A DNA stretch of 64,000 nucleotides from Methanosarcina horonobensis HB-1 = JCM 15518 (GTDB lineage: Archaea > Halobacteriota > Methanosarcinia > Methanosarcinales > Methanosarcinaceae): NCBI RefSeq assembly GCF_000970285.1, contig NZ_CP009516.1, positions 971,036 through 1,035,035 of the forward strand, in the 5' to 3' direction. The translations under genes and the position numbers were made by a program. The notes beneath the pieces were generated by a model, which worked only from the letters and a program-made list of their open reading frames with translations, had not been told where the DNA came from and did no database searches. Of this stretch, positions 47,235 to 63,885 are shown one piece after another; position 1 is the stretch's first letter, and every line of letters starts with the position of its first letter.

Positions 47235-47406
47235 ATTCGTGAGCAAGATCCATTAAAACAAGGATTGAAACAATCATTACTTTCATATTGAAAGCTATGC
47301 GTAAGAATTCGCGAGCAAGATCCACTAAAACAAGGATTGAAACATTATTCTGATGTAAATTTTGTAGATAGTTCATCAACATTCGCGAGTAAAATCCTTA
47401 AAACAA
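47235..47406 (+). CRISPR. Relic mini-array, two repeats plus a truncated third
   Basis: Repeats at 47235-47271 (one mismatch, ATTCGTGAGC) and 47307-47343 (ATTCGCGAGC with CCACT), then a truncated third at 47381-47406. Spacers are 35 and 37 bases, in the normal range. It ends about 50 bases before copy 2 of the Doc-like cassette. Confidence 0.92.
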
Positions 47407-47502
47407 TTTTTTCTGTTGATATCTTGCAGGCTCTGACAGAATCAATTTTGACAAAATTGAATGTGTACTTATTTATCATATTATAACATATTATAACAGA
47501 AT

Positions 47503-48142: not shown

Positions 48143-48182
48143 TAACATAGAATCAAAGAGATGTACAGAGCAACAATTAATT

Positions 48183-48219
48183 ATTCAACATCATAATCCA
48201 CTAAAACAAGGATTGAAAC
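48183..48219 (+). CRISPR. Degenerate CRISPR repeat after TA copy 2
   Basis: 37 bases starting ATTCAACATCATAATCCACT and ending AACAAGGATTGAAAC. Followed by a spacer-length 36 bases and the next relic at 48256. Confidence 0.88.
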
Positions 48220-48255
48220 CTATATTATATTTTTTGTCTGCAACGTTTTCTATAT

Positions 48256-48291
48256 ATTCTAGAGCTAGATCTATAAAACAAGAGCTGAAAC
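48256..48291 (+). CRISPR. Degenerate CRISPR repeat before the chitosanase gene
   Basis: 36 bases starting ATTCTAGAGCTAGATCTATA and ending AAGAGCTGAAAC. It lies 45 bases upstream of the chitosanase start. Confidence 0.8.
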
Positions 48292-48336
48292 CAAAAATTG
48301 TACAGTTGGATCAAAATACAGGAAAGGAGAATCTAC

Positions 48337-49089
48337 TTGAAAATATGGATGGTTTTGATATTCCTCCTTCTGATGGCAGTACCTTGTGCCGCCTCAGACA
48401 AGGAAGCAGCCTTGCAGATGACAACCGCACTTGAGAACAGTGTTATTGAAATGCAGTTCAATTATGCGGAAAACCTGGGAGATGGTCGTGGAATTACGTT
48501 CGGCTGCGTTGGGTTTTGTACAGGGACATATGATGGGAACATTCTGATTAAGCACTATACAGAACTGAATCCGAACAATGACCTGGCAAGGTTCATTCCT
48601 GCCTTAGATGCTATTGATAGTAGTTCTCATACTGCTACTGCTGCTGATAGAGATGGCAATCCAAGTGTGGAAGGACTGGATGGTTTCATTGAGGCTGTGA
48701 AAGGATGTGACGACCCGCTGTTCGAGCAGGCTCAGCTGGACATGCTGGACAAATTGTATTGGGATCCAGCAATGAAACTGGCTGAGGGAGCAGGTTGTAA
48801 GAATGCTTTGACGAAGGCATTCATCTATGATATGTATGTGAGGCATGGTCCTAATGGTGCCCAGAGCATCATGAAGGAAGCCGGTTCTGTTGGGGACGAT
48901 GAAAACGCCTACTTGGAAAGGCTGTTCCAGTACAGGGATTCTGCACTCAAGAATGAAGGCCTGGGTGATGTGGACAGGGATAATGGATACAAACAGGTAT
49001 TAGAAGCGGGCAATATCGACCTGGCCACACCATTCACGTTTGAAGCACATGGAGACATGTTCAACATTTCTGGTGATCTTGGGATTTGA
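48337..49089 (+). CDS. Secreted GH46 chitosanase
   Basis: About 250 residues from TTG 48337, chosen because GGAAAGGAGAA lies 6 bases upstream and it gives a clean signal peptide (MKIWMVLIFLLLMAVPCAAS). The mature part is GH46: E33 in TALENS and D49 in LGDGRG are the likely catalytic pair, followed by GFCTGTYDGN and the family end AGNIDLATPF. GH46 enzymes hydrolyse chitosan with inversion. Such an enzyme is unexpected in a methanogen and more common in bacteria, so transfer is likely. Relic CRISPR repeats bound it on both sides. Confidence 0.9.
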   Translation: MKIWMVLIFLLLMAVPCAASDKEAALQMTTALENSVIEMQFNYAENLGDGRGITFGCVGFCTGTYDGNILIKHYTELNPNNDLARFIPALDAIDSSSHTATAADRDGNPSVEGLDGFIEAVKGCDDPLFEQAQLDMLDKLYWDPAMKLAEGAGCKNALTKAFIYDMYVRHGPNGAQSIMKEAGSVGDDENAYLERLFQYRDSALKNEGLGDVDRDNGYKQVLEAGNIDLATPFTFEAHGDMFNISGDLGI

Positions 49090-49190
49090 TTCGAGAGCAA
49101 GATCCACTAAAACAAGGATTGAAACCATAAGTATTAAGACTGTGCATTATCCTGAGTTATTCGAGAGCAAGGTCCACTAAAGCAAGGATT
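49089..49190 (+). CRISPR. Relic repeat-spacer-repeat after the chitosanase gene
   Basis: First repeat 49089-49125 differs from the main repeat only at CCACT; its first base is the last base of the chitosanase stop codon. A 33-base spacer follows, then a second repeat from 49159 truncated near 49190 and carrying GGTCC and AGCAAGG changes. Confidence 0.93.
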
Positions 49191-49341
49191 ATACTCGGAT
49201 CATACCTGCTCCTGGCATACAAACATATCAACACCAATAAACACTGCAAGCAATATTACTAACGAGTTGCTGCTATACCCCAGATGCTGTAAAAGAAAAT
49301 TAAGCAAAATCTCATTAATCATATCTGTAATAAGAGATAAT

Positions 49342-49842
49342 ATGGACAGTCTGAAGAGTGGAGATATTACTGTACGCACGCAAAAGTCTGGTGATGCCGC
49401 ATATATAGCTTATAGACATTGCGTTCTTTACGAAAAAGAATACGGACTTTGCGGAACTTTTGAGCAGTACGTGCTGGACAGCCTGGTTAAATATATTGAG
49501 CACAGGTCCGAAGGGGAAATCTGGGTAGCAGAGTATAATGGTCAGATTGTTGGCTTTATAGGAGTTGTCAGTACAGACAAAAATACAGCGCAGCTCAGAT
49601 GGTTTTTAATAGAGCCAGAATTTCGCGGAACAGGCTTGGGCAGACAGTTGATGACCATAGCAGTCGACTACTGCAAACAAAAAAAGTTCAGTCGAGTATT
49701 TTTGTGGACAATGCAGGGTTTGGAGGTTGCATACCATTTGTATAGTAGTTTTGGATTTATTCCTGTAGAACAGGTCGAAAATAATACATGGAAAAGAGGT
49801 GTGGTAGAAGAGCGCTGGGAACTTTTATTGGAATCTGTGTAA
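49342..49842 (+). CDS. GNAT-family N-acetyltransferase
   Basis: 166 residues from ATG 49342. RWFLIEPEFRGTGLGRQLM at about residues 92-110 carries the acetyl-CoA binding R-x-x-G-x-G/A loop, and the helix after it plus VAYHLYSSFGFIPVEQ complete the fold. Substrate unknown. The frame extends upstream to 49267 but that part is poor. It lies between two relic CRISPR clusters, so it is another cargo gene. Confidence 0.87.
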   Translation: MDSLKSGDITVRTQKSGDAAYIAYRHCVLYEKEYGLCGTFEQYVLDSLVKYIEHRSEGEIWVAEYNGQIVGFIGVVSTDKNTAQLRWFLIEPEFRGTGLGRQLMTIAVDYCKQKKFSRVFLWTMQGLEVAYHLYSSFGFIPVEQVENNTWKRGVVEERWELLLESV

Positions 49843-50001
49843 AACCGGGCAGTCGCTTAACTCGTTATATGTTTCTAATACTTTTTACGTTAAATAAAAC
49901 AGAATATCGAAGGACAAATATCGAGTTTAAAAATCAATTGGAATGATAACGTTTTTTCATATTTATCGTTTTTGTCATTTTTGTGCATATAATATTTAGA
50001 A

Positions 50002-50181
50002 CATCGTGAGCAAGATCTATTAATACAAGGATTGAAACTGCTTGTGCATCCAGCCGGCTATCAAGCAGCTGGCTTATTCGAGAGCAAAATCCACTAAAAC
50101 AAGGATTGAAACCACAATTGGACTCGACTATGAACTTATTGAGGTAAAATTCGAGAGCAAGATCCACTAAAACAAAGATTA
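50002..50181 (+). CRISPR. Relic mini-array of three degenerate repeats
   Basis: Repeats at 50002-50038 (starts CATCGTGAGC), 50076-50112 (near perfect, CAAAATCCACT) and 50149-50181 (truncated at AAAGATTA). The spacers are 37 and 36 bases. It closes the cargo block carrying the GNAT gene. Confidence 0.92.
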
Positions 50182-50564
50182 AGGCCTTTTCGATTTTTGC
50201 CAGCATTCATACTGTTTGCTTCTTTTCATATTGACGTTTCAGGCTCTCAAGTGCATATCTTCAGCATACACCGAAGCCAGGAGTTAAAGCCAAAAATATG
50301 ATAGTGGGGTCAATCTTGCGTTCGCATTTTATAATATCAGTCCTCCTAGCAGTTTCCCTTGAACATTCTTTGGGAAATATTTTTGAAGAGGATTTTAGAG
50401 AGTAATTTTAGAGTAGAGGTTTTTCAGAGCAGATTAGAATGAGCATATATGATTACATATAGTTTTATGGAATGATTATTATAAAACTATATGTAAAAAA
50501 CTGAATTATCCCTTAACCGATGACCAATGAATGAGGTCTTGGTTAAAGAAAGGACTGATTTGCC
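50182..50564. promoter_or_regulatory. Region upstream of the ZIP gene with a 16-bp inverted repeat
   Basis: 383 bases without a gene. A perfect inverted repeat of 16-base arms, TTACATATAGTTTTAT at 50453-50468 and its complement at 50481-50496, has a 12-base centre. It ends about 68 bases before the ZIP transporter start and is a candidate operator or transposon end. Confidence 0.7.
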
Positions 50565-51329
50565 TTGCTGGATGTATTGGAGGCAGGATTCTGGGGCCTC
50601 ATTGCGGGTCTGGGTTTGTTTTTGGGTGCTCTGGTCGGCTATTTTGTGGAACTTCGCCACCACGTGATTGCCACGATCATGGGGTTTGGTGGAGGCGTTC
50701 TGATTTCGATTTTGTCTTTCGATCTCATGGAAGAAGCGTATGAGCTGACAGGATTTGAAATGACCGCCGCTGGGTTTTTAGCAGGCGGCTTAGTTTTTAG
50801 CACAGCGAACTGGCTGCTTGCAAGGCATGGGGCACAAAACCGCAAGCGCTGTGGACAATGTGTGCAGCAGCCGAGTGAGGAACAACATCCGGGAAGTGGG
50901 ATATCGCTGTTTTTAGGCGCTCTGGTGGATGGTATTCCAGAGTCGCTGGTAATTGGATTAAGCTTGATTGGAGGCGGTATGATCCCATCCGCTACGCTGG
51001 CAGGTTTTTTCCTGGCAAACGTTCCCCAGGGGCTTTCCAGCGCTTCGGGCATGAAAGATGCTAGGCGATCCGCTCGCTACGTGCTCGGCGCGTGGGGAGG
51101 ATTGACACTCGCCTCTGGCGTTGCAGCACTTTTAGGATACAGCATCTTCGGAGGACTTTCGACAAGCATGATCGCGTTGATGTCTGCATTTGCTGCCGGA
51201 GGGCTGTTAGCGATGCTGACGGAGACGATGATCCCCGAGGCATTCGACCAGGCGTCCGCCTTCATCGGGCTAATTACTGTAACGGGTTTTCTGGCAGCGT
51301 TTGTCATATTGAAGATAAGTCTTCACTAA
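50565..51329 (+). CDS. ZIP-family metal ion transporter
   Basis: A 254-residue membrane protein with about eight helices. GALVDGIPESLVIGLSLI near residue 138 is the ZIP helix IV motif, where D, E and nearby residues line the metal path (zinc, iron or manganese). The charged His/Cys-containing loop at residues 85-110 (HGAQNRKRCGQCVQQ) may sense or store metal. TTG start with AAAGGA upstream. Composition and neighbours look bacterial (Firmicutes-like). Confidence 0.85.
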   Translation: MLDVLEAGFWGLIAGLGLFLGALVGYFVELRHHVIATIMGFGGGVLISILSFDLMEEAYELTGFEMTAAGFLAGGLVFSTANWLLARHGAQNRKRCGQCVQQPSEEQHPGSGISLFLGALVDGIPESLVIGLSLIGGGMIPSATLAGFFLANVPQGLSSASGMKDARRSARYVLGAWGGLTLASGVAALLGYSIFGGLSTSMIALMSAFAAGGLLAMLTETMIPEAFDQASAFIGLITVTGFLAAFVILKISLH

Positions 51330-51378
51330 ACTTGCAGCTCTTCAGCAGCGGTGCCCGGCCTGATAATTCGGCCTGATA

Positions 51379-51466
51379 ATTGACAGGGATGTCAATATAT
51401 GCCACATTTATATATGTTGACAGGAGTGTCAGTATACGCTATATTTATACTGACAGGACGGTCAGT
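51379..51466. promoter_or_regulatory. Three tandem palindromic operators for the TetR regulator
   Basis: ATTGACAGGGATGTCAAT at 51379-51396, TTGACAGGAGTGTCAG at 51417-51432 and ACTGACAGGACGGTCAGT at 51449-51466 share the core TGACAGG-x-TGTCA. Archaeal TATA-like boxes (TTTATATAT near 51408 and TATATTTATA near 51440) lie between them. Binding of the adjacent TetR protein would block its own promoter. Confidence 0.75.
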
Positions 51467-51475
51467 AAAACGGAG

Positions 51476-52096
51476 ATGATGCAGTTGCCTTTACAGCTTT
51501 ACGATAAAGAGCAAATTTTGGATTCCTGTTTGGCAGTGTTTGCCCGGTATGGGTATGAAAAGACATCAACAGCGATGCTGGCTGAGGCAGCTGGTATTTC
51601 CAGAGCACTGATCTTTCACCATTTCAAGAGCAAAAAAGAGCTTTATCTAAGTTTACTGGACCGATGCTTTGCCAGAGGAAGGATTGAAATGGGCTTTGAC
51701 AACCTGTTGGAATATAAGGACTTTTTTGCGGCTAAAAAAGAGTTCAGTATAATTAAATTCAATTATTATAAAAAAAATCCTGATTTGTACAAATTTGTGC
51801 GAGAAGCCTTTTTTGCAACACCGTATGAATTGAAGATGGAGATTGAAGAAAAGTACGGAGAGTTGATCACCAACAGGGACAAAGAGTGGGAGCTGCTGTT
51901 TGCCAAAGTTCCCCTCCGGGAAGGCGTGGATCGCGGGCAGTCATTCAAGCTGGTCATGCTCGTACTGGATTATTTCGACAACAAATATATATCGGAATTA
52001 GCGGACGATAGCGATTTGGATGAGACGTATCTCCAAAGCTTTCTGGCTGAGAGAGACAGTTTTCTGGCTCTGGTTCGGCATGGAATCGAAAGGTAA
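51476..52096 (+). CDS. TetR/AcrR-family transcriptional regulator
   Basis: 206 residues from ATG 51476. The N-terminal helix-turn-helix ILDSCLAVFARYGYEKTSTAMLAEAAGISRALIFHHF is typical TetR; the C-terminal domain (residues 60-206) should bind an inducer. An upstream extension to 51380 would run through the three palindromes and is unlikely. It precedes the rifampicin-phosphotransferase-like gene by 18 bases, so they are probably one operon. Confidence 0.9.
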   Translation: MMQLPLQLYDKEQILDSCLAVFARYGYEKTSTAMLAEAAGISRALIFHHFKSKKELYLSLLDRCFARGRIEMGFDNLLEYKDFFAAKKEFSIIKFNYYKKNPDLYKFVREAFFATPYELKMEIEEKYGELITNRDKEWELLFAKVPLREGVDRGQSFKLVMLVLDYFDNKYISELADDSDLDETYLQSFLAERDSFLALVRHGIER

Positions 52097-52114
52097 AGGA
52101 GAGGGGTTGTAAGA

Positions 52115-54469
52115 ATGGCTGACATGGTAAAAAGCTTCCGTGAGCTAACACCTGAACTGCAGGCCACAGCCGGCGGCAAAGGCGGCACACTGGCAAGGCT
52201 GTTCCAGGCCGGATATCCCGTGCCGGCAGGCTTCGTCGTTTTACCAACTGCTTTTCTGGATGAAAAGCTGACTGACGAAGCCTGGGATGAAGTGCGAGTT
52301 CATCTACATGCCATCACGAAGGACAATGTCAGAGCACAGTTTGCCGTAAGGTCGTCAGCTTTGAGTGAAGATTCGGCTCGGACTTCCTTTGCCGGGGAAT
52401 TTGAAACAGTACTTAACGTAGAATCGGATAAAGAGATACAGGAAGCGATCTATACAGTTTTCAGATCAAGAGAAGCTGAACGAGTGAAAGCCTACAGTGC
52501 TATTCAGGGTATGGATCAGTTACACCAGATTGCGGTAGTGGTTCAGCTGATGGTGCCGTCGGAGATTTCCGGCGTATTATTTACTGCCGATCCGTTTACC
52601 GGCAGTTTTGCCAGCATGATAGGTAATTATGTCCATGGTTTGGGTGAGCGGCTGGTATCCGGTGAGGTAGATGCACATACTTTCAAATTGATGCGGCCAA
52701 AAGGGAAATATGACGGCCCGGAAGAATTTAAGAAACACGCCCCGGTGCTGTAGCAATATGCTGCAAGGCTCGAGAGAGAACTGGGTGCCCCACAGGATAT
52801 CGAATGGGCGGTTGCGAAAGGAAAACTGTACCTGCTGCAGGCAAGGCCGATAACCACACTGACAGAGGGCAATCTGGACACCTATGAAATAAACGAAAGC
52901 CTGGCCGGTGATGCCCTTTGGGTAAATACCAATGTGGGGGAGGCAATCCCTGATGTTATTACACCGTTTACCTGGAGTCTGGTAAGGGGCCTGGACAATG
53001 AGTCCGGTTTCATTCCTGGATACTATCTATGGTCCGGCAATATCTGCGGCAGAATATACTCAAATATCAGCCAGAGATTATCCGCAATTACGGCACTATA
53101 CGGTTGGGATGCCAAACGGGCCATGACGCTAATCGGTGAAATTTTTGGTCATATTCCTGAAGATTTAAGCGTACCCGTATATCCATTTTCACGGTTTCAT
53201 TTGATTAAGGAGATGCTGCCAGGGATAAAGCGTCTAATCTGGAATACTTTAAAAGCCTCTAAAAATATGCCGTCGTTTCTCAATGACACACCTGTCTGGT
53301 GCGGAAAGATGACAGAACGGATCGGAAAAATAAAGACAGAGGCAGAGCTGCTGTCGTTGTGGAAAGATGAGCTCCAGCCTTATAGCTTCAAGGCCTGGTG
53401 GATGCATATCACAGCAGGCAGCAAAGCAGTGCTTGCTTTGAGATTAAATAAGAAGCTTGCAAAGTTGGTAGGAACGGAAGATGCGAATGCGCTTCTGTCC
53501 AACTTAAGAGGAAGCTCCGAACTGGCAAGTCTTGGGCCGATCACAGGCATTTCCAGGGTTATCAAGGGAGAAATGAGCCGGGAAGAATATTTGCTGCAGT
53601 ACGGCCACCGGGGACCCCATGAGTTTGAGCTGTCCATACCTGGTCCTGCTGAGGATAATACCTGGCTGGAGAGGCAGGTAGAGGAATTTGGAAAGATGGA
53701 TGTGGATGGGCTTTTAGAGAGACAGCATACTCAATTCGAAGCAGCCAGGAAGAGATTTCAGGAGCGTTTTCCCAATAAAGTAAAATGGCTTGATAAGCAG
53801 CTGGCGAAAGCATCGGAAGGCACTCGCCTCAGGGAAGCAGCCCGTTCGGAGTTGGTAAGGGTATTAAGAGTTGTTCGGGCCTTTGCGCTTAAAACAGGAG
53901 AGCTTACGGGAATAGGGGACAGTGTATTTTTCCTCTATGTTAATGAAGTTGAAAACTTGCTTGCAGGAGACAATTCAGCACTGAAGTATGTTCCCGCAAG
54001 AAAAGAGAACTATGAGAAATATAAAGCTCTGCCGCCGTTCCCGTCAATTATCCGGGGAAGATTCGATCCCTTCGAATGGGCAAAGGACCCCGATAGAAGA
54101 CTTGATTACTACGATGCTACTATGCCGGTTGCTACTGCGCCTTATTCGGAAATGCTCAGAGGATTTGCCGGAGCAGCCGGCAAGGTAGAAGGGAGGGTGC
54201 GCGTTCTGGCAAATCCCGAAGAAGGCGAAATGCTGCAGCCAGGTGAAATTCTGGTCGCCACAACCACCAATGTTGGATGGACACCTCTATTCCCTCGAGC
54301 CGCAGCAATAGTCACCGATATAGGAGCTCCGCTGTCCCACGCTGCCATAGTAGCCAGAGAACTTGGTATTCCTGCTGTTGTGGGATGTGGCAACGCCACT
54401 CTAAGGCTAAAAACAGGAGACAGGGTTATAGTTGACGGTGGACAGGGAACTGTACATATATTGAAGTGA
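52115..54469 (+). CDS. Rifampicin phosphotransferase-like PEP-utilising enzyme with in-frame UAG
   Basis: One frame of 785 codons interrupted at codon 213 (TAG, 52751-52753). N-terminal ATP-grasp domain with GGKGGTLARLF and QLMVPSEISGVLFTADPFTG; a middle helical region; and a C-terminal phosphohistidine domain with GAPLSHAAIVAREL (H742). It ends after the His domain and lacks the pyruvate/PEP barrel of PEP synthase, which is the order found in rifampicin phosphotransferases (ATP, rifampicin, His domains). Coding quality does not drop after the TAG. Either a nonsense mutation (CAG to TAG is one change) or pyrrolysine decoding. Ribosome binding site GGAGAGGGG before the ATG. Confidence 0.8.
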
Positions 54470-54545
54470 AAAGTCAATTTTTACATTTTAAAATGAGTCG
54501 GTACGTCAAATTTTTTGGATATTTTCGGGCATATTCGAAAGCGTT

Positions 54546-54812
54546 GTGACCAACTGTACTTTTAGGGGTAATACTAGCCTATCTAAGTCTTATCTTTACG
54601 CCAACCAGGAGATTCGTAATCGGATTGAGGCCTTGCGCAAGCAGCAGGAAGGTGTTTCCTCTAAGCTGGTGAAGCAAGAGATGACCGATAGCAGCAAAGA
54701 TGTTTTTTTGGCCGCGAAGAACAAAAGGATTCATGAGTTGGAGGAAGAGGTCAAACATCTCAAAGGTGAGCTTCAGCGCCTAAGAGGGCAATTGTATGAG
54801 AAGGGGCTTTAA
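54546..54812 (+). CDS. DUF6262/TnpC-like protein fragment (Tn554-type element)
   Basis: An 88-residue frame with GTG start. SKSYLYANQEIRNRIEALRKQ and the coiled-coil KNKRIHELEEEVKHLKGELQRLRGQLYE match the small third protein of Tn554-like transposons. The usual N-terminus is missing; the first residues are non-homologous, so it is truncated. No TnpA/TnpB recombinase gene is present. It is a trace of how the bacterial-type genes to its left may have arrived. Confidence 0.7.
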   Translation: MTNCTFRGNTSLSKSYLYANQEIRNRIEALRKQQEGVSSKLVKQEMTDSSKDVFLAAKNKRIHELEEEVKHLKGELQRLRGQLYEKGL

Positions 54813-55005
54813 GCTACGTTGAGGACATATCCACAACGCGAACGAAAGAAATGGCTGAGTTTTTGGGTCGGGAGTTAAGATAACTTGAAGAAAAGGTAAA
54901 GATACATAAGCGGCAGCTGGCTCTACTGGAAAAAAACAATCAGCAATGCATAAAAAAGTTATACAGTTTATGCGGTTTTGACAAAAAATAAAGAGGAGGA
55001 TTACT

Positions 55006-55524
55006 ATGAATGAGAAAGTAGTAGAACAACAGGAGAGAAACATAATTATAGAAGCAGCAAAGCTTGCCGATCGTGCACAGATCAGCGAATTGCTGAGCCG
55101 CTTCTGCAGCGTTGTAGACGATAAATGCATCAGCGTTGCGACGGTGGCGGCTGTTTTCACACCGGATGGCCGCTTCGTGTCTCCCAATGGCGCGGCAGCT
55201 GTCGGTCCTGAGGTTATTGCCGAAGAAAAAAGCAAGAGCTTCAGCCGGTTCCGCGCAACGCACCACGTCACTAGCGACCATATCATCGACCTCGACGGGG
55301 ACACCGCTCACCTACGAGCTAATATGACAGCGATGCACCTGTGGGCTGAAGAGGAGAGTGATCCGAGGTCGCTGCAATCGCATTTTGTTGCCGGAGGTGT
55401 TTTTGAAGCGGTCGCGGTACGTACCAGCGACGGGTGGCGGTTCAGCGAACTGAAGTCGCGTATTACGTGGCGAACGGGTGCAAGTCTGCCTGTAATGGCG
55501 AAGATGGGTAAACCAAGGGACTGA
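55006..55524 (+). CDS. SnoaL-like (NTF2-fold) protein
   Basis: A 172-residue protein with excellent ribosome binding site AGAGGAGGATTACT before the ATG. LADRAQISELLSRFCSVVDD near residue 20, VFTPDGRFVSP and THHVTSDHIIDLDGDTAHLR fit the SnoaL-like domain used by small-molecule dehydratases, cyclases and isomerases. Substrate unknown. Higher GC than flanks, so it appears foreign. Confidence 0.82.
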   Translation: MNEKVVEQQERNIIIEAAKLADRAQISELLSRFCSVVDDKCISVATVAAVFTPDGRFVSPNGAAAVGPEVIAEEKSKSFSRFRATHHVTSDHIIDLDGDTAHLRANMTAMHLWAEEESDPRSLQSHFVAGGVFEAVAVRTSDGWRFSELKSRITWRTGASLPVMAKMGKPRD

Positions 55525-55699
55525 CGGGAAGAATCGGTAGGCACGCATCGGCAGAAGCATTGGCAAGGAGGCCGAGTGGACTGGCTGGAAAGGCGTATGG
55601 GAAAGTACTGCCTGCTGCCCAATAACGAAGTTGAAAAATGCCGAACTGGAGTTCGCAGATATCCTTCAATGAAAAAACTACCCCGAAGTAAGTTGTAAC

Positions 55700-55925
55700 A
55701 ATGCTTTTGGGCAATTCGCCTTTTAACCGGTTTTACAATATAACCAACAATGACAGTTGCAATGAAGCCTGCAGCCAAAGGAATAATATTTTTTCTCACA
55801 AACTCGGCTGGCTCAACGCCGCAGATTGCTGCTACCGGAATAACGCCCCAAGGGATGATTGTTCCTCCGCATACCCATACGGCAGCTATTTGTCCGAGCG
55901 CTGCAAGTCCTTCTCTGCTTATGTG
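55700..55925 (-). pseudogene. C-terminal fragment of a multi-pass membrane transporter
   Basis: The minus strand encodes two hydrophobic helices with GGTIIPWGVIPVAAICGV and FVRKNIIPLAAGFIATVIVG followed by KPVKRR, which is transporter-like sequence. There is no start or upstream part; sequence to the right (55927) is the direct repeat. The exact family is not certain. Confidence 0.55.
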
Positions 55926-56177
55926 TAACGAAAGAATGGCTGAGTTTTTGGGCCGGGGGTTAAGATAATGTCAGCCAGATGTCAACTCGCTGAATAAAAA
56001 TTAGATAGGGAATTTGTTAATAATCTCATTATACTCATGCTGCGCTTCTGTGATTACAGGCTTTGAGTATACTTCTAAGACTTCCTGCTTTTATGACCAA
56101 TGTATAGTTATATTAACGCATCATTTTTATGATGTTGAATCTAACTTGAACTTCGCGACAGAGATGCTTCTACTAGG

Positions 56178-56213
56178 ATTCGAGAGCAAAATCACTAAAA
56201 CAGGGATTGAAAC
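56178..56213 (+). CRISPR. Single degenerate CRISPR repeat
   Basis: 36 bases starting ATTCGAGAGCAAAATCACTA and ending CAGGGATTGAAAC, with one deletion and three substitutions. Confidence 0.9.
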
Positions 56214-56274
56214 CAGGTAGTATTAACATCCGAAATTATCTCATGATCAAACTTTCTTGTTCTGATTAACTTCT

Positions 56275-56484
56275 TTAGTTTTCTGTTAATGATTTTTTTA
56301 CATATTCTACAGCATCAGCTATTACAGACACGCCAAAGTCGTTTCCATACTCTTTAAACCTTAAACAAAATGCTTGAGCTATAATTAAAGAATGTGGCAA
56401 AGAAATATGAAAATTTATATAATTCATACGCATAAAATCTTTAATGTCATCCAAAACATATTTGGGAACTATTGAATGCGACAC
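56275..56484 (-). CDS. Small protein of unknown function (possibly a fragment)
   Basis: A 69-residue frame with GTG start. It looks like natural protein (helical, with ISLPHSLIIAQAFCLRFKEYG) but I recognise no family. It lies between two relic CRISPR repeats, and could be a remnant or a TA component. Confidence 0.35.
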   Translation of the reverse strand: MSHSIVPKYVLDDIKDFMRMNYINFHISLPHSLIIAQAFCLRFKEYGNDFGVSVIADAVEYVKKSLTEN

Positions 56485-56768
56485 GTTGGATGATCTCCCA
56501 ATGAAGTTATTTTTTTACTGAATATATTTTCTTTTTATCATATAACAACGTTTCATTTTTACTTGTTTTATTATTTTTATTTTTTAGTAATACGTTCTCT
56601 AACATGGGAAATCTTTATGTATCTGAACGCATTTTTATTGATGTGTAACTCAAATTTACTTGATTTGCTTGAAAAACGGCATTTTCCTCCCTAAATCTGC
56701 ACTGTAGTTTTTCAGGAGTGGTTTGCCATTTACCTCTCCTGAAATCTGCTGTCTTCCTGCACTAATTC

Positions 56769-56805
56769 ATTTACGAGTAAGGTCCACTAAAACAAGGATT
56801 GAAAC
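56769..56805 (+). CRISPR. Single degenerate CRISPR repeat
   Basis: Starts ATTTACGAGTAAGGTCCACT and ends AAGGATTGAAAC. The right 20 bases match the main repeat well. Confidence 0.85.
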
Positions 56806-56941
56806 ACTGTAACATAAAGTTGTTAAAGCGCCAAAAATGAAAACTCTTTACAAAATCGGAATTGGTCTTATGTGGTTTTCTACATCAAAAATTGTTGGTA
56901 CTACACTTAGTGTGTAGTATCCGGAAATTCTTAAAAGGCAG

Positions 56942-57898
56942 TTACATCGAAGTAGCTGGCACATAAGCGGTGAAAGGAACTGCTTGAGACTCAGAATTTA
57001 CGGCTTCTCCTTCAAAGACATATACTGGTAAAGCGGAATCCTGTTCTTCGCCTGCAGGCTCCATCCAATAGGCAAGATAAATATTCTTGATGCTTACCTT
57101 ATCGATTGTATCCAGGTTTGCCGTTAAGAACATGGCTTTGCCATTTTGCAGTTCAGTATAGGCAGTCTCAGCTGTTTTAATATTCGCTTTTTCCTTAGAT
57201 ATCTCTACATCTTTCCACGCCTTGAACAAACCAACGACTTCACCCTTCTCTCCGATATATACCTTTATTTTGTTACCAGGACCAACAATGGGTATGCCAT
57301 TAATCTCTCTTGCAGATGCAACTACCTGAAGCACCACATCGTACTCTTCCAGGACTTTTCCTGTACTTTTCTCAGACTCTAACTGCTTATCAGCAACAAC
57401 TTTATCCAGTTTAGCATCAGACGGAAGAAGATTCATTTTTGCAAGGAAGCTCTCTGCAATTTTTATTGCCTCTGCATCCGATGGTAAATCCGGCTGTGAT
57501 GAAACTACGGGGCTCATTTTTTCAGGTACGGAATAAAATATTGCTCCTGATTTCTCATAGACCATCAAATGTTCAGTTCCATCTTCACTCAGCATACCTA
57601 TTTTCCCGGTCCCGGCAGGACCGGCTTCTCCGGTAAAACCAAAACGTTGTCCTATTTCTTCGACATATTCAGATGATACCGTGGGTGCTTTCGTCTCTAA
57701 AATAGGAAATGTACTTTCTAACTCTGGAAAAGAAGTTTCCAGCGTAAATCCCACTGATGAATCAATGCCTGCCTCGTTTGTCGGGAGAACGGTGCCTGCC
57801 TGAGTATGTAACGCCATGCTAATTCCGAATATTGTAAGTATGGATACTATCCCCGCCAAAACCAATATTTTATTTTTCAATTTGCTCCCTCCTTTCAA
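56942..57898 (-). CDS. Secreted partner protein of the DUF6345 protein
   Basis: A 318-residue protein with signal peptide (ILVLAGIVSILTIFGISMA) and a large extracytoplasmic part. Several segments (AEAIKIAESFLAKMNLLP, KIKVYIGEKGEVVGLFKAWKDVE) resemble PepSY/propeptide-like repeats that chaperone or inhibit proteases. It overlaps the DUF6345 gene by 4 bases (ATGA), so the two are translated together. A role as inhibitor or folding partner is inference. Confidence 0.65.
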   Translation of the reverse strand: MKGGSKLKNKILVLAGIVSILTIFGISMALHTQAGTVLPTNEAGIDSSVGFTLETSFPELESTFPILETKAPTVSSEYVEEIGQRFGFTGEAGPAGTGKIGMLSEDGTEHLMVYEKSGAIFYSVPEKMSPVVSSQPDLPSDAEAIKIAESFLAKMNLLPSDAKLDKVVADKQLESEKSTGKVLEEYDVVLQVVASAREINGIPIVGPGNKIKVYIGEKGEVVGLFKAWKDVEISKEKANIKTAETAYTELQNGKAMFLTANLDTIDKVSIKNIYLAYWMEPAGEEQDSALPVYVFEGEAVNSESQAVPFTAYVPATSM

Positions 57899-58653
57899 CA
57901 GTTATAAGTCCATGTAGTGAATTGATCATCCACAGCAGGATCGGAAATTACCGTACCCTGGCCCCATATTTTGTCATTGCCACAAGTTGATGTTTCACCA
58001 AATACTTTTAGAGTAACGCCTGCAGGCTGATTGATATCTATCCCATAGAACCAGGCATTCTTTACCGTATATGCATCATCGTTTGCACCATCATCAATTA
58101 GATAACCAGCCCAGTTCTCTCCGTCACCAGCATAATTATATGCCGTGGTGGAAAAACCACATATCAAATGAGCACCTTGTAAGGACTCTGAAAAATCGTT
58201 GTTGCTTAGAGTATTACATGCATGTAGACCGATCCATTCTAAATCGTAGTCTCCCCATTCAGCTTCATTAGCATAAACTTTCTCTGTGTATGCAGATACA
58301 TCAAGTTTTCCAGCAGAACCATGTCCCTGGTAGAACGCAATGTCTACACCATCAATATAAGTAGTATCCGAACCACTCTGTTCGAAATGAGCAGCTTTTG
58401 CGTTGCTATCTCCTTTGTTGAACTTCTTTGTCCACCCAGCGTTCCCGATACGATTATAAAAACCCACAGCAGAATCATCACTATTAGGTAAGTCCGCATA
58501 CGGGTAGGTATAATCGCATACCCATTCAATCCCAACTTCCGGACTTGATGAATCGCTATCATCGCCCGTACCAGCGCTTGCTGGCAATGTTAGTGCTGCA
58601 AGGATACATAAGACCAACATGGTTGTTCTAATTCCATATCTACTTCCGTTCAT
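57895..58653 (-). CDS. Secreted DUF6345 protein with caspase-like His/Cys pair
   Basis: A 252-residue exported protein (signal peptide through residue 27). The DUF6345-like body has GNAGWTKKFNKGDSNAKA, then DIAFYQGHGSAG (H111) and EWIGLHACNTLS (C146). A hydrophobic strand followed by H-G and another followed by A-C is the clan CD cysteine peptidase pattern (caspases, gingipains). Whether it cleaves protein is unproven. Coupled to the downstream partner gene; the membrane-anchored regulator 138 bases upstream may control both. Confidence 0.75.
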   Translation of the reverse strand: MNGSRYGIRTTMLVLCILAALTLPASAGTGDDSDSSSPEVGIEWVCDYTYPYADLPNSDDSAVGFYNRIGNAGWTKKFNKGDSNAKAAHFEQSGSDTTYIDGVDIAFYQGHGSAGKLDVSAYTEKVYANEAEWGDYDLEWIGLHACNTLSNNDFSESLQGAHLICGFSTTAYNYAGDGENWAGYLIDDGANDDAYTVKNAWFYGIDINQPAGVTLKVFGETSTCGNDKIWGQGTVISDPAVDDQFTTWTYNC

Positions 58654-58790
58654 GCACTATCTCCATTATTTTTTTCACAAAACAATTAATTTGTATTGTA
58701 TTATGGAGTAGATATGAAAAATTAATAAAAGGTCGTAATATGTTCGGAAAAAACCGAATTTCAGAAACTGCCTGCTGCCTTCTCACATTA

Positions 58791-59294
58791 CTAAAAAAAA
58801 TGTTTTTTCTCTATCCCTACACCCCATTGCCTTAAACTAGAATAGAAAAGTATGACGCTTATTACAATAAAAAGCAGGCCTGCTAAAAGATAAAGTGTTA
58901 TATCATAGGCACTTTCCGCTGGAGGATATGTACTTTGTCCCAAATAATCTGTCATGAATTTGGCGATGTATGTAAAGCCACATGCAACTGACACGACAGA
59001 GAAAGATAAAAGAACCAGTATCTTATTCTTTTCCTGTGGACGCAAGAGAATTATGCCTTTTTCTGTTATTTCATAGTATATCCATTTGTGGGTTCCCTCT
59101 TTTTTCCTTACCAAGCCAGCATCGAGTAACTTTTCTAAATGTTCATGAACTGTCGATTTTGCCAGATTTTCAGTTTTCGAGAGTTCTGTGATCGTCATAC
59201 ATCTTGCATCAAGTTTTCTTAAAATCGAAATCCTTGATATTGACGATAACGCGATAAACGACTTCAAGTCCAATATAACGTTCTCAGACGTCAA
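58791..59294 (-). CDS. Membrane-anchored winged-helix regulator
   Basis: 167 residues. An ArsR/MarR-like winged helix (TITELSKTENLAKSTVHEHLEKLLDAGLVRKKEG) at residues about 32-68 and wing KWIYYEITEKG, then two membrane helices (VLLSFSVVSVACGFTYIA and LYLLAGLLFIVISVILFY). Such proteins can read an envelope signal directly. It is first in a minus-strand block with the DUF6345 pair. TTG start at 59294. Confidence 0.82.
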   Translation of the reverse strand: MTSENVILDLKSFIALSSISRISILRKLDARCMTITELSKTENLAKSTVHEHLEKLLDAGLVRKKEGTHKWIYYEITEKGIILLRPQEKNKILVLLSFSVVSVACGFTYIAKFMTDYLGQSTYPPAESAYDITLYLLAGLLFIVISVILFYSSLRQWGVGIEKKHFF

Positions 59295-59708
59295 AAACTA
59301 CGCACCTTTAATTAAGTTCATATTGCGACTATTTCTACTATTTATTACAAATACTTCTACTATTAACTTATCGAGTACAAATAATTGTATTTCGGTATGC
59401 TTTTTGGTTGGCAAGCAAATTTAAATCGTGTGTAGAATTCTACAAGAATTTGCATTAATGATTATATTCTTTCCTCATATTGACGACTCTCACGGTGTAT
59501 AGCCTGTATGGATAGAGTTTGTATCAGTTTTAACACTTTATTCATAACTCGATTTAAAAAATCAACTATTAGAATCTGTTAGTATTATCTAACTAATAGA
59601 GAATGTTAATCAAAATAATTTTAGAACTTATTATAAGTGACTTTCATTAAGGAAAAGAAATCCGGGAATTCTTTTTTGAGTAATATTCTAATTTCATATT
59701 CACTATTG
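59295..59708. other. AT-rich region upstream of the winged-helix regulator
   Basis: About 410 bases with no gene seen. The regulator's promoter should lie at 59300-59420. The rest is AT-rich up to the relic repeat at 59709. Confidence 0.4.
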
Positions 59709-59745
59709 ATTCGAGAGCAAGCTCCATTAAAATAAGAGTTAAAAC
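59709..59745 (+). CRISPR. Single degenerate CRISPR repeat
   Basis: Starts ATTCGAGAGCAAGCTCCATT and ends AAGAGTTAAAAC. It lies 62 bases from the end of the CapA-like gene. Confidence 0.88.
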
Positions 59746-59806
59746 TTAATTTAAACAAAATTTTTTGAAATTCAAGCTAAAAATTGCATATTTTAGTTAC
59801 TAAAAA

Positions 59807-60931
59807 TCAATTTATTATAAGTTCGATGGAATTATCGCTAAGTAGTTTAAATTCCGTATCAAATGCCTTCCCTTCCCTGTTTAAAACATGTTTTATCCAT
59901 TTTGCGTAATTACGGCCTGCGTAGTTTAATTTAAAATTTTTTATCTGCATGGGTATAATCTTTAATTTGCTGATCTTTCCCATGTCAGTGTCAAAGTCGA
60001 CAAAATACATTAGGGCAAGGTCGTCTCTGTATATTTCGTAGCCTGTTATCCCTTCATAATCATTTATAAAATCGCCGCATCCGTACAATATTAATCTATT
60101 TTTATAGACCTCAATGCCTATTGGATGATGCGATGAATGGCCATGCACTATGTTTACCCCTGCCAGATCGATAAGGTTATGTGCAAATTCCATATGAGCC
60201 TTGGATATTCTGTAGCCCCAATTGCTGCCCCAGTGGATTGATACTATCGAAATATCATTCTTGCCTCTTATTGCGTCGAATTTTTCTTTTATGTTCCTGA
60301 CCGTATTTATTGAATAATCGGGAATAAGATTTACCCCGGCTCTGTTACTTTCAGCGCTCCATTCATTCGGAATGCCGCTTGTAATTGAGCCACAGGAATA
60401 TATTAAAACTCTTCCCTTCCTTTTTAAATCAAACACGGCAACTTTTTCAGCTAAAGACTTATCAATTCCTGCGCCTGCAAATTTTATTTTTGCATCGCTG
60501 AGTGTTTTAATGGTTTCATCAAGCCCCTTATATCCCCAGTCCAGGACATGATTATTGGCAAGAGAAGTAAAGTCAATCCCAGCATCTTTTATTACGTTAA
60601 TATTTTGAGGATTTAACTTGTAATGAATTCCTTTATGTTTCCAGTAATCCCTGCTTGATGTTACGCTTGTTTCAAGATTTATGATCTTTAAATCCGGTTT
60701 TTTATTGTCAAACTCCTTTAATGCGTCTCCCCAGACGTATGAATAATCCACGGGTTTATCAATCTCGCCGTTTTTATCTTCCGCAATATCCACATATCCT
60801 TTTGCAGACTTCATGTACGGCTCATAAATCCTCGGATCGCCCGGATGAGGCAGAATCTGGTCAATCCCCCTTCCAAGCATAACGTCGCCGCATAGGAAAA
60901 TTGAAATTATTTTTTCTATGGTCATATTCAT
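59807..60931 (-). CDS. CapA-family (PgsA-like) metallophosphoesterase-fold protein
   Basis: A 374-residue protein of the CapA family linked in bacteria to poly-gamma-glutamate capsule. Motifs: CGDVMLGRG near residue 15, NLETSVTSS near residue 84, ANNHVLDWGYKGL near residue 125, SIHWGSNWGY near residue 233 and VHGHSSHHP near residue 258, giving the metal-binding Asp, Asn and His set. No signal peptide is obvious. Flanked by relic CRISPR repeats on both sides. Confidence 0.88.
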   Translation of the reverse strand: MNMTIEKIISIFLCGDVMLGRGIDQILPHPGDPRIYEPYMKSAKGYVDIAEDKNGEIDKPVDYSYVWGDALKEFDNKKPDLKIINLETSVTSSRDYWKHKGIHYKLNPQNINVIKDAGIDFTSLANNHVLDWGYKGLDETIKTLSDAKIKFAGAGIDKSLAEKVAVFDLKRKGRVLIYSCGSITSGIPNEWSAESNRAGVNLIPDYSINTVRNIKEKFDAIRGKNDISIVSIHWGSNWGYRISKAHMEFAHNLIDLAGVNIVHGHSSHHPIGIEVYKNRLILYGCGDFINDYEGITGYEIYRDDLALMYFVDFDTDMGKISKLKIIPMQIKNFKLNYAGRNYAKWIKHVLNREGKAFDTEFKLLSDNSIELIIN

Positions 60932-61112
60932 ATTTAATTCGAGATATCATTTAAAATATATTACCATATTATTATAAATTTGTTAGAGTTTGGCAAATAT
61001 GGACCGCCCATAAATCCTATTGTATTTTTTTCAATAAGATGCCTATAATAATTTTCAGTACTGCAATTACTAAAATATTTCACAAAAATTTGACATTTGA
61101 ATCTATCCAATG

Positions 61113-61193
61113 ATTACGAATTTTCCACTAAACAAGGATTGAAACAATAGAAATACCGACATCCACTTTATGAAATCTTTATTCGCAAGCAAG
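61113..61193 (+). CRISPR. Degenerate repeat, spacer and half repeat cut by an IS fragment
   Basis: Repeat 61113-61145 (ends CCACTAAACAAGGATTGAAAC), a 35-base spacer, and the first 13 bases of the next repeat (ATTCGCAAGCAAG) at 61181-61193. Transposase-coding sequence starts directly after. Confidence 0.8.
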
Positions 61194-61580
61194 TTCATAC
61201 CTCCAATATTCAGGATCAAGATGGAGCTAAACTTGTTCTGCAACAGATTAGTGGGACGTTCTCTCGATTGAAGCTTATTTGGGCTGATGCAGGTTACTCA
61301 GATCAACTTGTTGATTGGGTCAAAGTAGCTTGTGGTTGGGTACTTGAAATGGTTACGAGGAGAGATGATGTCAAAGGTTTTCAAGTACTGCCTCACAGAT
61401 GGATAGTAGAGCATACATTTGGACGACTAGGTCGATATCGACGGTTGAGTAAAGATTACGAAGGATTGACAGAATCAAGTCAAGCATTCATATATGCTGC
61501 GATAATTAATATAATGATTAAAGACTGGCTAGGATCAAATCTTGAAGCAAATGAAAAAAATTTAATTTTAAGACAGTCTC
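61194..61580 (+). pseudogene. Truncated IS5-type transposase
   Basis: The frame from about 61194 reads HTSNIQDQDGAKLVLQQISG, LKLIWADAGY and VLPHRWIVEHTFGRLGRYRR, RLSKDYEG: the C-terminal half of an IS5-family DDE transposase with its last Asp and Glu regions. The N-terminal half is missing. TTTAAGACAGTCTCTTAA at 61563-61580 resembles the IS end. The open frame continues to 61693 through non-transposase sequence. The element was clipped exactly at a CRISPR repeat. Confidence 0.82.
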
Positions 61581-61691
61581 TTAATTCCACTTTAACAAAA
61601 AACAATAATAGTTCTTTTTTCATCTTTGTAATATCGGCTTGCCTTCCTGCCACAGCAGACAATGTACCAACAAGCTGTCATCGCAGGAAAT

Positions 61692-61797
61692 AACTCAAAG
61701 ATCCACTAAAAGAGGGATTGAATTGTGAGATTATGGGAGTTGTGAATGATCCAGAAATAAAATTCAATAGCAAGATCTATTAAATAATAATCGAAAC
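61692..61797 (+). CRISPR. Two degenerate CRISPR repeats with one spacer
   Basis: 61692-61723 (AGATCCACTAAAAGAGGGATT core) and 61762-61797 (starts ATTCAATAGCAAGATCTATT, ends TAATCGAAAC), separated by 38 bases. Confidence 0.75.
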
Positions 61798-61836
61798 TAA
61801 AAAACCATGTCACTTCTCATTGCAACCTCGAACTCG

Positions 61837-61888
61837 ACATCAACTTTCAGACACTAAAGTGTACATCAACTCCCGGACACTAAAGTGT
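61837..61888. repeat. Tandem 26-base repeat at the 3' end of the RNB gene
   Basis: Two units, ACATCAACTTTCAGACACTAAAGTGT-like, at 61837-61862 and 61863-61888 differ at about four bases. The second includes the last codons and stop of the RNB gene. Such tandem ends are seen at some insertion-sequence termini. Confidence 0.7.
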
Positions 61889-63686
61889 ATATCATCGCTC
61901 TAGCTGCTAACCTTTTGGCCCTTTGCTTTTTTCCTGCTTGGCCGGTGCTGGTCGAGGAGCCAAAGGTGCAGGTACAGGTGAAGGTCGGCTTGTTGGTCGA
62001 GCCTTCCGTCTCAAACGAATAAGCCGGCAAGGGAAGTTTCTTTGCCTGACAATATTCCTGCAGGGCAAAAATTGGGTCTTTTGACGTGTTAATTGTCATT
62101 TCTCCCTTACTGGCCGGCAGGTCTGCTACCTTGGTCTTCAAGTCAGGAGTGGGTAAGCCCAGAATAGTTGCGAGCAGGTCTACGGATGCCCGCTGCATTG
62201 CGCCTTTCTTTGTCAGGTCCTCATATGCAGCGGACTGGTACTCTCTGTCACCGACTCTAATGGCGCTCAGGGCGGTGAATACCGGTATGTTGCCTCGGGC
62301 AGTTTCGGTCACTTCATATATGGGCATCTGCCAACCTGGTATATGTTGTGCGATATCGAAGATTGAGACTGCGTGATGAGGCGCAGTTGCTAACTCTTCC
62401 AGCACTGCTCTTTTAAGCTCAGTCCATCTTTCGCCATCAGGGGCCTGCAGGAGTACCAGCCCTGTGCAGATGATCGGCAACTTGCCAAGGCGTTTCTGGA
62501 AAACATCGCGGTAAGCCTCGGGGCAGTCTCCCCCTTTGCGGATCAGAAATTTGGTGATGCGCTCGAAATCTGTATCGCTTGCATTCTCAATCCTGTTCCT
62601 CAGGATGGCAAACTCAGCTTCTTTATACGCCTTTTCTTTCATGTACTCGCTTTTAGCCTTGTCGTTTTCAAGGTGCTTCAGGTTAATGTGCGATGCAATT
62701 GCCTGAATCTCTTCTTTAGAATGGGGCAAGGGCTCGTTCCGGATGTATGCCCTGATCTGCTGGTGGTTAACGAGATCAGCATACCTTCGGATGGGCGAGG
62801 TGAAATGGGTATACGCTCCGAGGTTCAGTCCGAAATGGCCCAGGATGACGGGGCCATATTCCGCTCTATTGAGCATCATGTACGCGGTATGCCTGACTGT
62901 AGCTATGTTTACCTCAGGGATGACAGCTATGCTTTCGAGCAGCTTCAGCAAGTCCTCCCGCTCAGGGGTGGCGCTCCGGGCTGTATGGTTACGGAAAAGG
63001 ATAGGAATGTCATTTTTGACCGCATACTCTGCTACGGCCATGTTAGCGAGAATCATCAGCTCTTGGATGATAACGTAGCCGATAGTATCTTCCCTGCGTT
63101 TCAGTTGCCGTAGCGATCCTTCTTCACTCGTCACCAGCCCCTTCCCCAAATCGTAGAATGCCAGCGCTCCGTGGTTACGGCGCTGCATCAAAAGACCGTT
63201 CGCTAACTGGCTTGCGAGCTTGATGAGAGCGTGCTGCGTGTGCTCCTTATCAGAGAGAATGCCGGGGACGTCAGAGAAAGCTATCTTTGCTTCGCTGGTC
63301 ATCGCAGTCCGCGAAATCTTTATTTCACGGATTGACAGATCCATGCCGAGGATGATATCCACAACGAGGACATACTTCGACTCTCCCGGCCATAGGGAAA
63401 ACTTCCCGTCTGCGAGCCGCCGGGGCAGCATCGGGCTGTTACCGTTTGCATAATACCTGGTCTCTACCCGGGATATCGCAAGTTGATCAAGCTCTGAATG
63501 CTTGTGAATTACTTTTGCGACGTCCGTGATCATGACCACGACGTGCCAGCCGCCGTTTTCCATGGTTTCCACCCAGATTGCATCATCCATGTCCCGGGTT
63601 GTCACGTCATCGATCGTAATGCCTCTGAGCATATCTGGCATAGTATCACTTAGGTGCAAAATTTGGTTTGCTTTCCTTATATGCAT
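61866..63686 (-). CDS. RNB-domain exoribonuclease (RNase II/R-like) with C-terminal dsRBD
   Basis: A 606-residue protein. TIDDVTTRDMDDAIWVE near residues 24-40 holds the catalytic aspartates (D26, D32, D34, D35) of RNB 3'-5' exoribonucleases; FTSPIRRYADLVNHQQ and the helices after it complete the RNB domain to about residue 370. Residues about 535-600 form a double-stranded RNA-binding domain (LQEYCQAKKLPLPAY and RAKRLAARAMI). The N-terminal cold-shock and C-terminal S1 domains of RNase R are absent. RNB enzymes are rare in methanogens, so this is probably acquired. The last residues lie in a tandem repeat. Confidence 0.88.
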   Translation of the reverse strand: MHIRKANQILHLSDTMPDMLRGITIDDVTTRDMDDAIWVETMENGGWHVVVMITDVAKVIHKHSELDQLAISRVETRYYANGNSPMLPRRLADGKFSLWPGESKYVLVVDIILGMDLSIREIKISRTAMTSEAKIAFSDVPGILSDKEHTQHALIKLASQLANGLLMQRRNHGALAFYDLGKGLVTSEEGSLRQLKRREDTIGYVIIQELMILANMAVAEYAVKNDIPILFRNHTARSATPEREDLLKLLESIAVIPEVNIATVRHTAYMMLNRAEYGPVILGHFGLNLGAYTHFTSPIRRYADLVNHQQIRAYIRNEPLPHSKEEIQAIASHINLKHLENDKAKSEYMKEKAYKEAEFAILRNRIENASDTDFERITKFLIRKGGDCPEAYRDVFQKRLGKLPIICTGLVLLQAPDGERWTELKRAVLEELATAPHHAVSIFDIAQHIPGWQMPIYEVTETARGNIPVFTALSAIRVGDREYQSAAYEDLTKKGAMQRASVDLLATILGLPTPDLKTKVADLPASKGEMTINTSKDPIFALQEYCQAKKLPLPAYSFETEGSTNKPTFTCTCTFGSSTSTGQAGKKQRAKRLAARAMIYTLVSGS

Positions 63687-63797
63687 GTTGGTCAGTAGAA
63701 AAGTGGTAAGAGATGCTCATTTTTAGAAGCAGTTGTCTCTGCCGTGCTGTCTTGGTGGAAAAAAGAAACTTTGTGCCATCGCGGAAAAATCATTCCA

Positions 63798-63834
63798 GAT
63801 TCGCAGGCAAGATCCGTTAAAATAAGGATTGAAA
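63798..63834 (+). CRISPR. Degenerate CRISPR repeat near the right edge
   Basis: Starts ATTCGCAGGCAAGATCCGTT and ends AATAAGGATTGAAAC. It shows that the relic zone extends at least to here. Confidence 0.88.
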
Positions 63835-63885
63835 CTCTTATCCAGCGGCTAAAATCGAGCTGGATATGGACTGTCTGGACAGGTT

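What the first reader, a model, noticed from the sequence alone, without database searches (positions are those of the whole stretch)
56942..59294. Three-gene system: membrane-anchored regulator, caspase-like exported protein and coupled partner
The DUF6345 protein has H-G (H111) and A-C (C146) motifs after hydrophobic strands, as in clan CD peptidases. Its gene overlaps that of an exported protein with PepSY-like segments that could be a trans inhibitor or chaperone. Upstream is a winged-helix regulator with two membrane helices. Together they could form a signal-controlled surface protease or defence/interference unit. It lies within the CRISPR relic zone, so it is probably mobile.
Basis: partly seen in the sequence, partly recalled or inferred. 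Interest (0 to 1): 0.66.

Follow-up and report, generated by a model that had tools for sequence, protein, structure and literature searches.

The report
Exported caspase-fold protease with YycH-like partner
A methanogenic archaeon carries an exported protein of unknown function that has the fold and catalytic pair of caspases, gingipains and legumain, and its gene is nearly always followed by one for a membrane-anchored protein of the protease-inhibitor (PepSY/YycH) type, so the two probably form a regulated protease at the cell surface.

Summary
The window (a Methanosarcina genome) encodes, all on the minus strand, a winged-helix regulator with two membrane helices (R), an exported DUF6345 protein (T) and a partner with an N-terminal membrane helix (P).

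T is very probably a clan CD cysteine peptidase. H111 and C146 are invariant in 33/33 homologues, and in 44/44 in a wider set. The AlphaFold model (pLDDT 88, pTM 0.84) matches SAVED-CHAT, gingipain RgpB, caspases and legumain (Z 13-15.5), with His and Cys at the ends of the expected strands.

P has the YycH/YycI fold, and relatives match the FTP/PepSY propeptide families. P lies directly downstream of 58 of 67 DUF6345 genes in 393 genomes. The two domains are fused in Planctomycetota and an archaeon (T-P) and in Deinococcus (P-T). A tethered T-P model has pTM 0.88; without coordinates I cannot say whether P covers the active site.

R is often adjacent but not obligatory. A fourth, undescribed membrane gene (C) belongs to many such operons and is absent here. 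Proteolysis and inhibition are inferred, not shown. Evidence for defence is lacking; mobility is unproven.

The parts
57895..58653 (-). T: exported DUF6345 protein, 252 aa, signal peptide then clan CD (caspase/gingipain-like) catalytic domain
   Evidence: PF19872 E 2e-43; AlphaFold2 pLDDT 88.4, pTM 0.84; VIA Z 15.5 to SAVED-CHAT, 15.0 to RgpB, 13.7 to caspase-8, 13.0 to legumain
58321..58323 (-). codon of H111, predicted catalytic histidine, right after strand 105-109
   Evidence: invariant 33/33, 44/44 in the wider set; end of strand in the model
58216..58218 (-). codon of C146, predicted catalytic cysteine (nucleophile), right after strand 140-144
   Evidence: invariant 33/33, 44/44 in the wider set; end of strand in the model
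56942..57898 (-). P: partner with N-terminal signal anchor and a YycH/YycI (FTP/PepSY-like) extracytoplasmic region; more likely start is the TTG at 57880 with a GGAGG upstream
   Evidence: family hits FTP, YycI, DUF4901; modelled homologue matches YycH Z 12.3 and 11.4, YycI Foldseek E 2e-6; downstream of 58/67 DUF6345 genes
58791..59294 (-). R: winged-helix (ArsR/HTH_20-type) regulator with two C-terminal transmembrane helices
   Evidence: HTH_20 E 1.5e-9; two hydrophobic segments 92-110 and 132-150; R-family genes within 3 kb of DUF6345 in about 20 loci

Best explanation
T and P form an extracytoplasmic peptidase complex. T is exported by its signal peptide and folds as a clan CD cysteine peptidase with a His111/Cys146 pair (fold and pair shown by model and conservation; activity inferred). 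P is held in the membrane by its N-terminal helix and binds T through its YycH/PepSY-like outer region (gene pairing, three or more separate fusions and a confident tethered model support binding). P most likely helps T to fold and keeps it inactive or localised, as FTP/PepSY propeptides do for thermolysin-type peptidases and YpeB does for SleB (inferred). R, where present, is a membrane-anchored transcriptional regulator that probably controls the operon or responds to the state of the complex (inferred).
For: H111, W140 and C146 invariant in 33 sequences, the others 21-66% identical to the window's protein; H and C 44/44 where aligned. The model's top matches are all clan CD folds: SAVED-CHAT Foldseek E 2e-6, caspases, RgpB, legumain; Z 13-15.5 over about 180 residues. 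Secondary structure gives His after one core strand and Cys after the next, with a three-stranded mini-sheet between, the arrangement described for clan CD (PMC4357240). P directly downstream on the same strand in 58/67 DUF6345 hits; P in 45/48 DUF6345 genomes. Fusions T-P in three Planctomycetota loci and in archaeal L034, reverse order P-(Ig-like)-T in a Deinococcus plasmid protein. T and P distances correlate, r 0.85, 0/2000 permutations. Tethered L008 T-P model pLDDT 88.8, pTM 0.88 with a disordered linker. Inhibitory role of PepSY/BLIP-like folds, and of YpeB on SleB, from PMC4282423 and PMC2954215.
Against: No peptidase assay exists; clan CD folds include transamidases. No coordinates were returned, so neither the H-C distance nor occlusion of the active site was measured. 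The tethered model used a stop codon read through, has three true fusions in its alignment, and had no control with a non-cognate pair. P occurs without T in 26 of 71 genomes, so it is not solely a T inhibitor. The three Planctomycetota fusions have Ser and Cys beside the His where most members have Gly. The T/P correlation may only reflect shared inheritance.
Confidence: 0.6

Rival explanations
1. T is a processing enzyme or transamidase rather than a degradative protease: it matures or anchors surface (S-layer-type) proteins, and P is a permanent structural subunit that positions substrates.
For: The fold also matches the GPI transamidase catalytic subunit (8imy_K, Z 12.7) and plant asparaginyl ligases (6l4v, Z 12.6). 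T-P pairing is nearly obligate and tandem copies of P follow one T in some loci (L045, L056), as might be expected for subunits of a complex.
Against: No recurrent surface-protein substrate gene was found beside the pair in 20 wide neighbourhoods; fold similarity is no closer to transamidases than to hydrolases.
Confidence: 0.2
2. T-P is the outer part of a transmembrane signalling unit: P (with the small membrane protein C) senses the envelope and T cuts the short outer loop of R, releasing its winged-helix domain to act on transcription.
For: R has a winged helix and two membrane helices with a loop of about 20 residues between them. R-family genes lie within 3 kb of DUF6345 in about 20 loci; I estimate 0.03 expected by chance. 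L002 keeps the order T-P-C-R, and P-C-R also occurs without T (L068, L069). YycH and YycI are accessory proteins of the kinase WalK (PMC7355866 abstract).
Against: Many T-P pairs lack a nearby R. C is missing from this window. No cleavage site or released form is known.
Confidence: 0.25
3. The cassette is a defence or inter-microbial conflict module: T is a toxin-like effector and P its immunity protein.
For: Patchy distribution, 6/31 genomes of the genus; caspase-fold effectors occur in defence systems such as SAVED-CHAT, the top fold match; it lies downstream of a CRISPR array.
Against: T has a signal peptide and P a signal anchor, so both act outside; T and P have no PADLOC match, T no phage match; no defence genes were recognised beside relatives; the CRISPR repeats nearby are isolated relics.
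Confidence: 0.08
4. T has lost catalysis and is a binding protein that merely keeps the caspase fold.
For: No activity is known to me for any DUF6345 protein; no paper in the library names the family.
Against: H and C are kept in 44/44 aligned domains down to about 21% identity, which binding alone does not explain well.
Confidence: 0.07

Closest known systems
Gingipain R (RgpB, peptidase family C25, clan CD)
   Same: exported; caspase-like fold (Z 15.0, 181 residues, 3.0 A); His/Cys pair; kept in check by a prodomain
   Different: 14% identity; the RgpB prodomain is in cis (own knowledge); T has no C25 Pfam match
SAVED-CHAT caspase-like protease
   Same: best fold match (Z 15.5, 183 residues, 2.9 A)
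   Different: 12% identity; SAVED-CHAT is intracellular and activated by a cyclic oligonucleotide (own knowledge); T is exported and has no SAVED domain
Legumain and GPI transamidase (C13)
   Same: fold Z about 13; legumain is controlled by a C-terminal domain (PMC4357240), comparable to the T-P order of the fusions
   Different: P has a YycH/PepSY-like fold; no C13 Pfam match
Thermolysin-type peptidases (M4) with FTP/PepSY propeptides
   Same: peptidase paired with an FTP/PepSY-type domain thought to inhibit it (PMC4282423, PMC2954215); family members of P hit FTP
   Different: M4 is a metallopeptidase with the propeptide in cis at the N-terminus; here a cysteine-peptidase fold and usually a separate downstream gene
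YycH/YycI regulators of WalK; YpeB-SleB
   Same: P fold matches YycH (Z 12.3, 11.4) and YycI (Foldseek E 2e-6); N-terminal membrane anchor; YpeB inhibits its partner enzyme SleB (PMC4282423)
   Different: no histidine kinase gene recognised beside T-P; the partner here is a peptidase fold

Membership tests
Clan CD cysteine peptidases | conserved His/Cys pair in the order His then Cys | tested here: met
   H111 and C146 33/33, 44/44
Clan CD cysteine peptidases | caspase/haemoglobinase fold | tested here: met
   AlphaFold model pLDDT 88.4; Z 13-15.5 to clan CD members over about 180 residues
Clan CD cysteine peptidases | His and Cys at the C-terminal ends of core strands 3 and 4, with a small three-stranded sheet after strand 3 (PMC4357240) | tested here: met
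   strands 105-109 then H111, 140-144 then C146; short strands 111-113, 116-118, 125-127; strand order only, no coordinates
Clan CD cysteine peptidases | glycine next to the catalytic histidine (PMC4357240) | tested here: met
   G110 in 41/44 and G112 in 36/44 aligned domains; the three Planctomycetota fusions have Ser-His-Cys
Clan CD cysteine peptidases | peptidase activity dependent on the cysteine | not testable with these tools
   needs bench work
Named clan CD families C11, C13, C14, C25, CHAT | match to the family's sequence profile | tested here: not met
   only DUF6345 in Pfam, nothing in NCBIfam; no PDB sequence match, single or profile; so a separate family of the clan
DUF6345 (PF19872) | score above Pfam's cut-off | tested here: met
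   148.8 bits against 26.9
FTP/PepSY/YycI superfamily (for P) | sequence match to FTP, PepSY or YycI profile | tested here: inconclusive
   window P itself no match; relatives: FTP 11/31 best 4e-5, YycI 9/31 best 1.6e-8; L034 FTP 23.3 bits against 21
FTP/PepSY/YycI superfamily (for P) | YycH/YycI fold | tested here: met
   modelled on the L008 homologue (45% identical to window P): Z 12.3 and 11.4 to YycH, Foldseek 2e-6 to YycI
FTP/PepSY/YycI superfamily (for P) | binds and regulates a partner | not testable with these tools
   only pairing, fusions and a confident tethered model
Known anti-phage defence systems | match to PADLOC models | tested here: not met
   T and P none; R only Csa3/CARF-associated matches in the winged-helix region

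The most novel reading that the evidence does not exclude
An undescribed archaeal envelope system: an exported caspase-fold peptidase (T), a YycH/YycI-like anchored partner (P), a small one-helix membrane protein (C) and a membrane-bound winged-helix regulator (R), in which protease state outside the cell is coupled to transcription inside. The window holds a rearranged form without C.
Probability: 0.25. Interest if true: 0.78.

Novelty: new variant of a known kind. Interest (0 to 1): 0.62.

Why it matters
DUF6345 has no stated function and no paper in the searched library names it. Placing it among clan CD peptidases adds a caspase-fold family to archaea, whose genomes have been said to lack clear caspase homologues although caspase-like activity was measured, Methanosarcina acetivorans included (PMC3615174). 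M. acetivorans carries a DUF6345 gene (control genome), so its contribution can be tested directly by deletion. Being exported and absent from most archaea sampled, DUF6345 cannot explain that activity in general. A YycH/PepSY-type partner for a cysteine-peptidase fold would also extend the inhibitor idea beyond metallopeptidases and cell-wall lytic enzymes.

Tried and rejected
PDB sequence searches with T, P and both profiles gave nothing useful; weak anti-sigma F and viral NSs hits to P (E 0.03-0.15) were judged chance. First attempts to align T and P rows with the Planctomycetota fusion misplaced P rows and were discarded in favour of the read-through alignment A5, checked column by column. 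Idea that orphan P genes sit beside another peptidase: upstream genes were unrelated or unrecognised. Empty-site comparison in other Methanosarcina: flanks are themselves scattered, so no clean insertion site was obtained. Searching Planctomycetota and Chloroflexota more widely failed because loci are not accepted as centres. C-family gene in the window: none. No Foldseek search of T against viral structures was made. A first profile of T was contaminated by the fusion proteins and was rebuilt from trimmed domains.

Full report
WHAT IS THERE. The window lies in a 5.02 Mb Methanosarcina-type genome (the genus is inferred from its relatives and from control hits, the species was not identified). 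Three minus-strand genes run R (58791-59294), T (57895-58653), P (56942-57898). T is DUF6345, PF19872, 148.8 bits against a cut-off of 26.9. R has an ArsR-type winged helix and two hydrophobic helices; T has an N-terminal signal-type segment and P a stronger hydrophobic one that could stay as an anchor. P most likely starts at the TTG at 57880, behind GGAGG, 14 nt after the T stop; the reported overlap of 2 nt depends on the earlier TTG.

T IS A CLAN CD PEPTIDASE FOLD. In 33 homologues from archaea, Planctomycetota and a Chloroflexota genome bin, H111, W140 and C146 are invariant. In a wider set of 50 domains, all 44 that cover the region keep H and C; the six others are fragments, some of them cut by masked sequence. 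AlphaFold2 gives pLDDT 88.4 and pTM 0.84, core mostly above 90. Foldseek returns SAVED-CHAT, caspases, RgpB and legumain, and VIA-align gives Z 15.5, 15.0, 13.7 and 13.0 to SAVED-CHAT, RgpB, caspase-8 and legumain. The strand order puts H111 and C146 right behind successive core strands with a three-stranded mini-sheet between them, as described for the clan in PMC4357240. Sequence searches find no named family of the clan. I therefore read DUF6345 as a separate clan CD family; activity is not shown.

P IS A YycH/YycI-LIKE PARTNER. The window's P has no significant Pfam match, but relatives match FTP (11/31, best 4e-5), YycI (9/31, best 1.6e-8) and the YcdB repeat (7/31). In the modelled homologue L008, residues 219-519 match YycH (Z 12.3 and 11.4) and Foldseek finds YycI at 2e-6 and 5coz at 7e-9. 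Proteins of the PepSY/BLIP-like superfamily are thought to inhibit a partner domain in cis or in trans (PMC2954215), as shown for YpeB on SleB (cited in PMC4282423).

T AND P BELONG TOGETHER. In 393 genomes of the phylum, DUF6345 occurs in 48 and P in 71; 45 have both, and 58 of 67 DUF6345 hits have P directly downstream on the same strand. P without T occurs in about 26 genomes, so T seems to need P more than P needs T. Fusions T-P occur in three Planctomycetota loci and in archaeal L034, and P-(Ig-like)-T in a protein of Deinococcus peraridilitoris plasmid pDEIPE01. Some loci have T followed by several P copies, or T-P repeated. Pairwise distances of T and P correlate with r 0.85 (0/2000 permutations), which may only mean joint inheritance.

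THE TETHERED MODEL. In L008 T and P are in the same frame, separated by a stop. Reading that stop as Gln, with the other in-frame pairs, the true fusions and single T and P rows aligned, AlphaFold2 gave pLDDT 88.8 and pTM 0.88 over 524 residues with a disordered linker. Two equal domains with no fixed mutual position would be expected near 0.5 (own knowledge), so the docking is predicted with confidence. Limits: artificial tether, no non-cognate control, no coordinates, hence no statement on where P sits relative to the active site.

R AND C. R-family genes lie within 3 kb of DUF6345 in about 20 of the 69 strongest R hits examined, either downstream on the same strand or upstream in either orientation; my estimate of the chance expectation is 0.03. 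In its own genome R is the only full-length member (213 bits, next 39). A small one-helix protein, C, without a Pfam match, follows P in some ten of the loci examined, among them L002, the second-closest relative, whose order is T-P-C-R. C and R also accompany P without T (L068, L069). C is absent from this window.

HOW IT MOST LIKELY WORKS. Shown: genes, conserved pair, gene pairing, fusions. Predicted with confidence: the folds and T-P contact. Inferred: T cleaves proteins outside the membrane; P assists folding and restrains or localises T; R controls the operon. Rivals are transamidation, signalling by cleavage of R, and a conflict role; the last has little support.

SURROUNDINGS. A CRISPR array lies at about 40.7-44.3 kb, followed by isolated, partly degenerate repeats, two of which (56769-56805 and 59709-59745) bracket the R-T-P cassette. 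One relative (L100) keeps the sequence next to P and its last 18 codons but not the rest, so the cassette has been lost or replaced there. This fits gain and loss but does not identify a mobile element.

VERDICT. A new family of a known clan with a new kind of partner: new variant of a known kind.

Noticed in passing
window 44224-63835: Isolated CRISPR repeats, exact to 6 mismatches of 37, are scattered beyond the array at 45692, 47235, 47307, 48183, 49089, 50002, 50076, 50149, 56769, 59709, 63799 (none in shuffles). Single genes or cassettes lie between successive repeats; 56769-56805 and 59709-59745 bracket R-T-P.
   Followed up: partly
L101, L102, L103 and L104: In other Methanosarcina genomes the homologue of the RNB gene (window 61866-63686, 85-88% identity) and, in G001, of the PGA_cap gene (59807-60931, 89%) also lie beside CRISPR repeats, as if the same genes recur next to arrays.
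   Followed up: partly
L100:4315-5171: Genome G009 keeps window 56323-57004 with the last 18 codons of P (83% identity at protein level) but no T or complete P there: remnant of a lost or replaced cassette.
   Followed up: partly
L043:10313-10837, L044:7321-7830, L002:1707-2156, L068:1231-1662: Undescribed family C, about 150-200 aa with one N-terminal membrane helix, often between P and R; L015 shows a weak match at the N-terminus of P, possibly a C-P fusion.
   Followed up: partly
L045:5012-10203, L056:7901-14737: One DUF6345 gene followed by four or five tandem P genes.
   Followed up: no
window 61268-61693: By eye, a fragment resembling an IS5-type transposase C-terminus; related sequence at 61193-61585 occurs in many places across the genus.
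   Followed up: no
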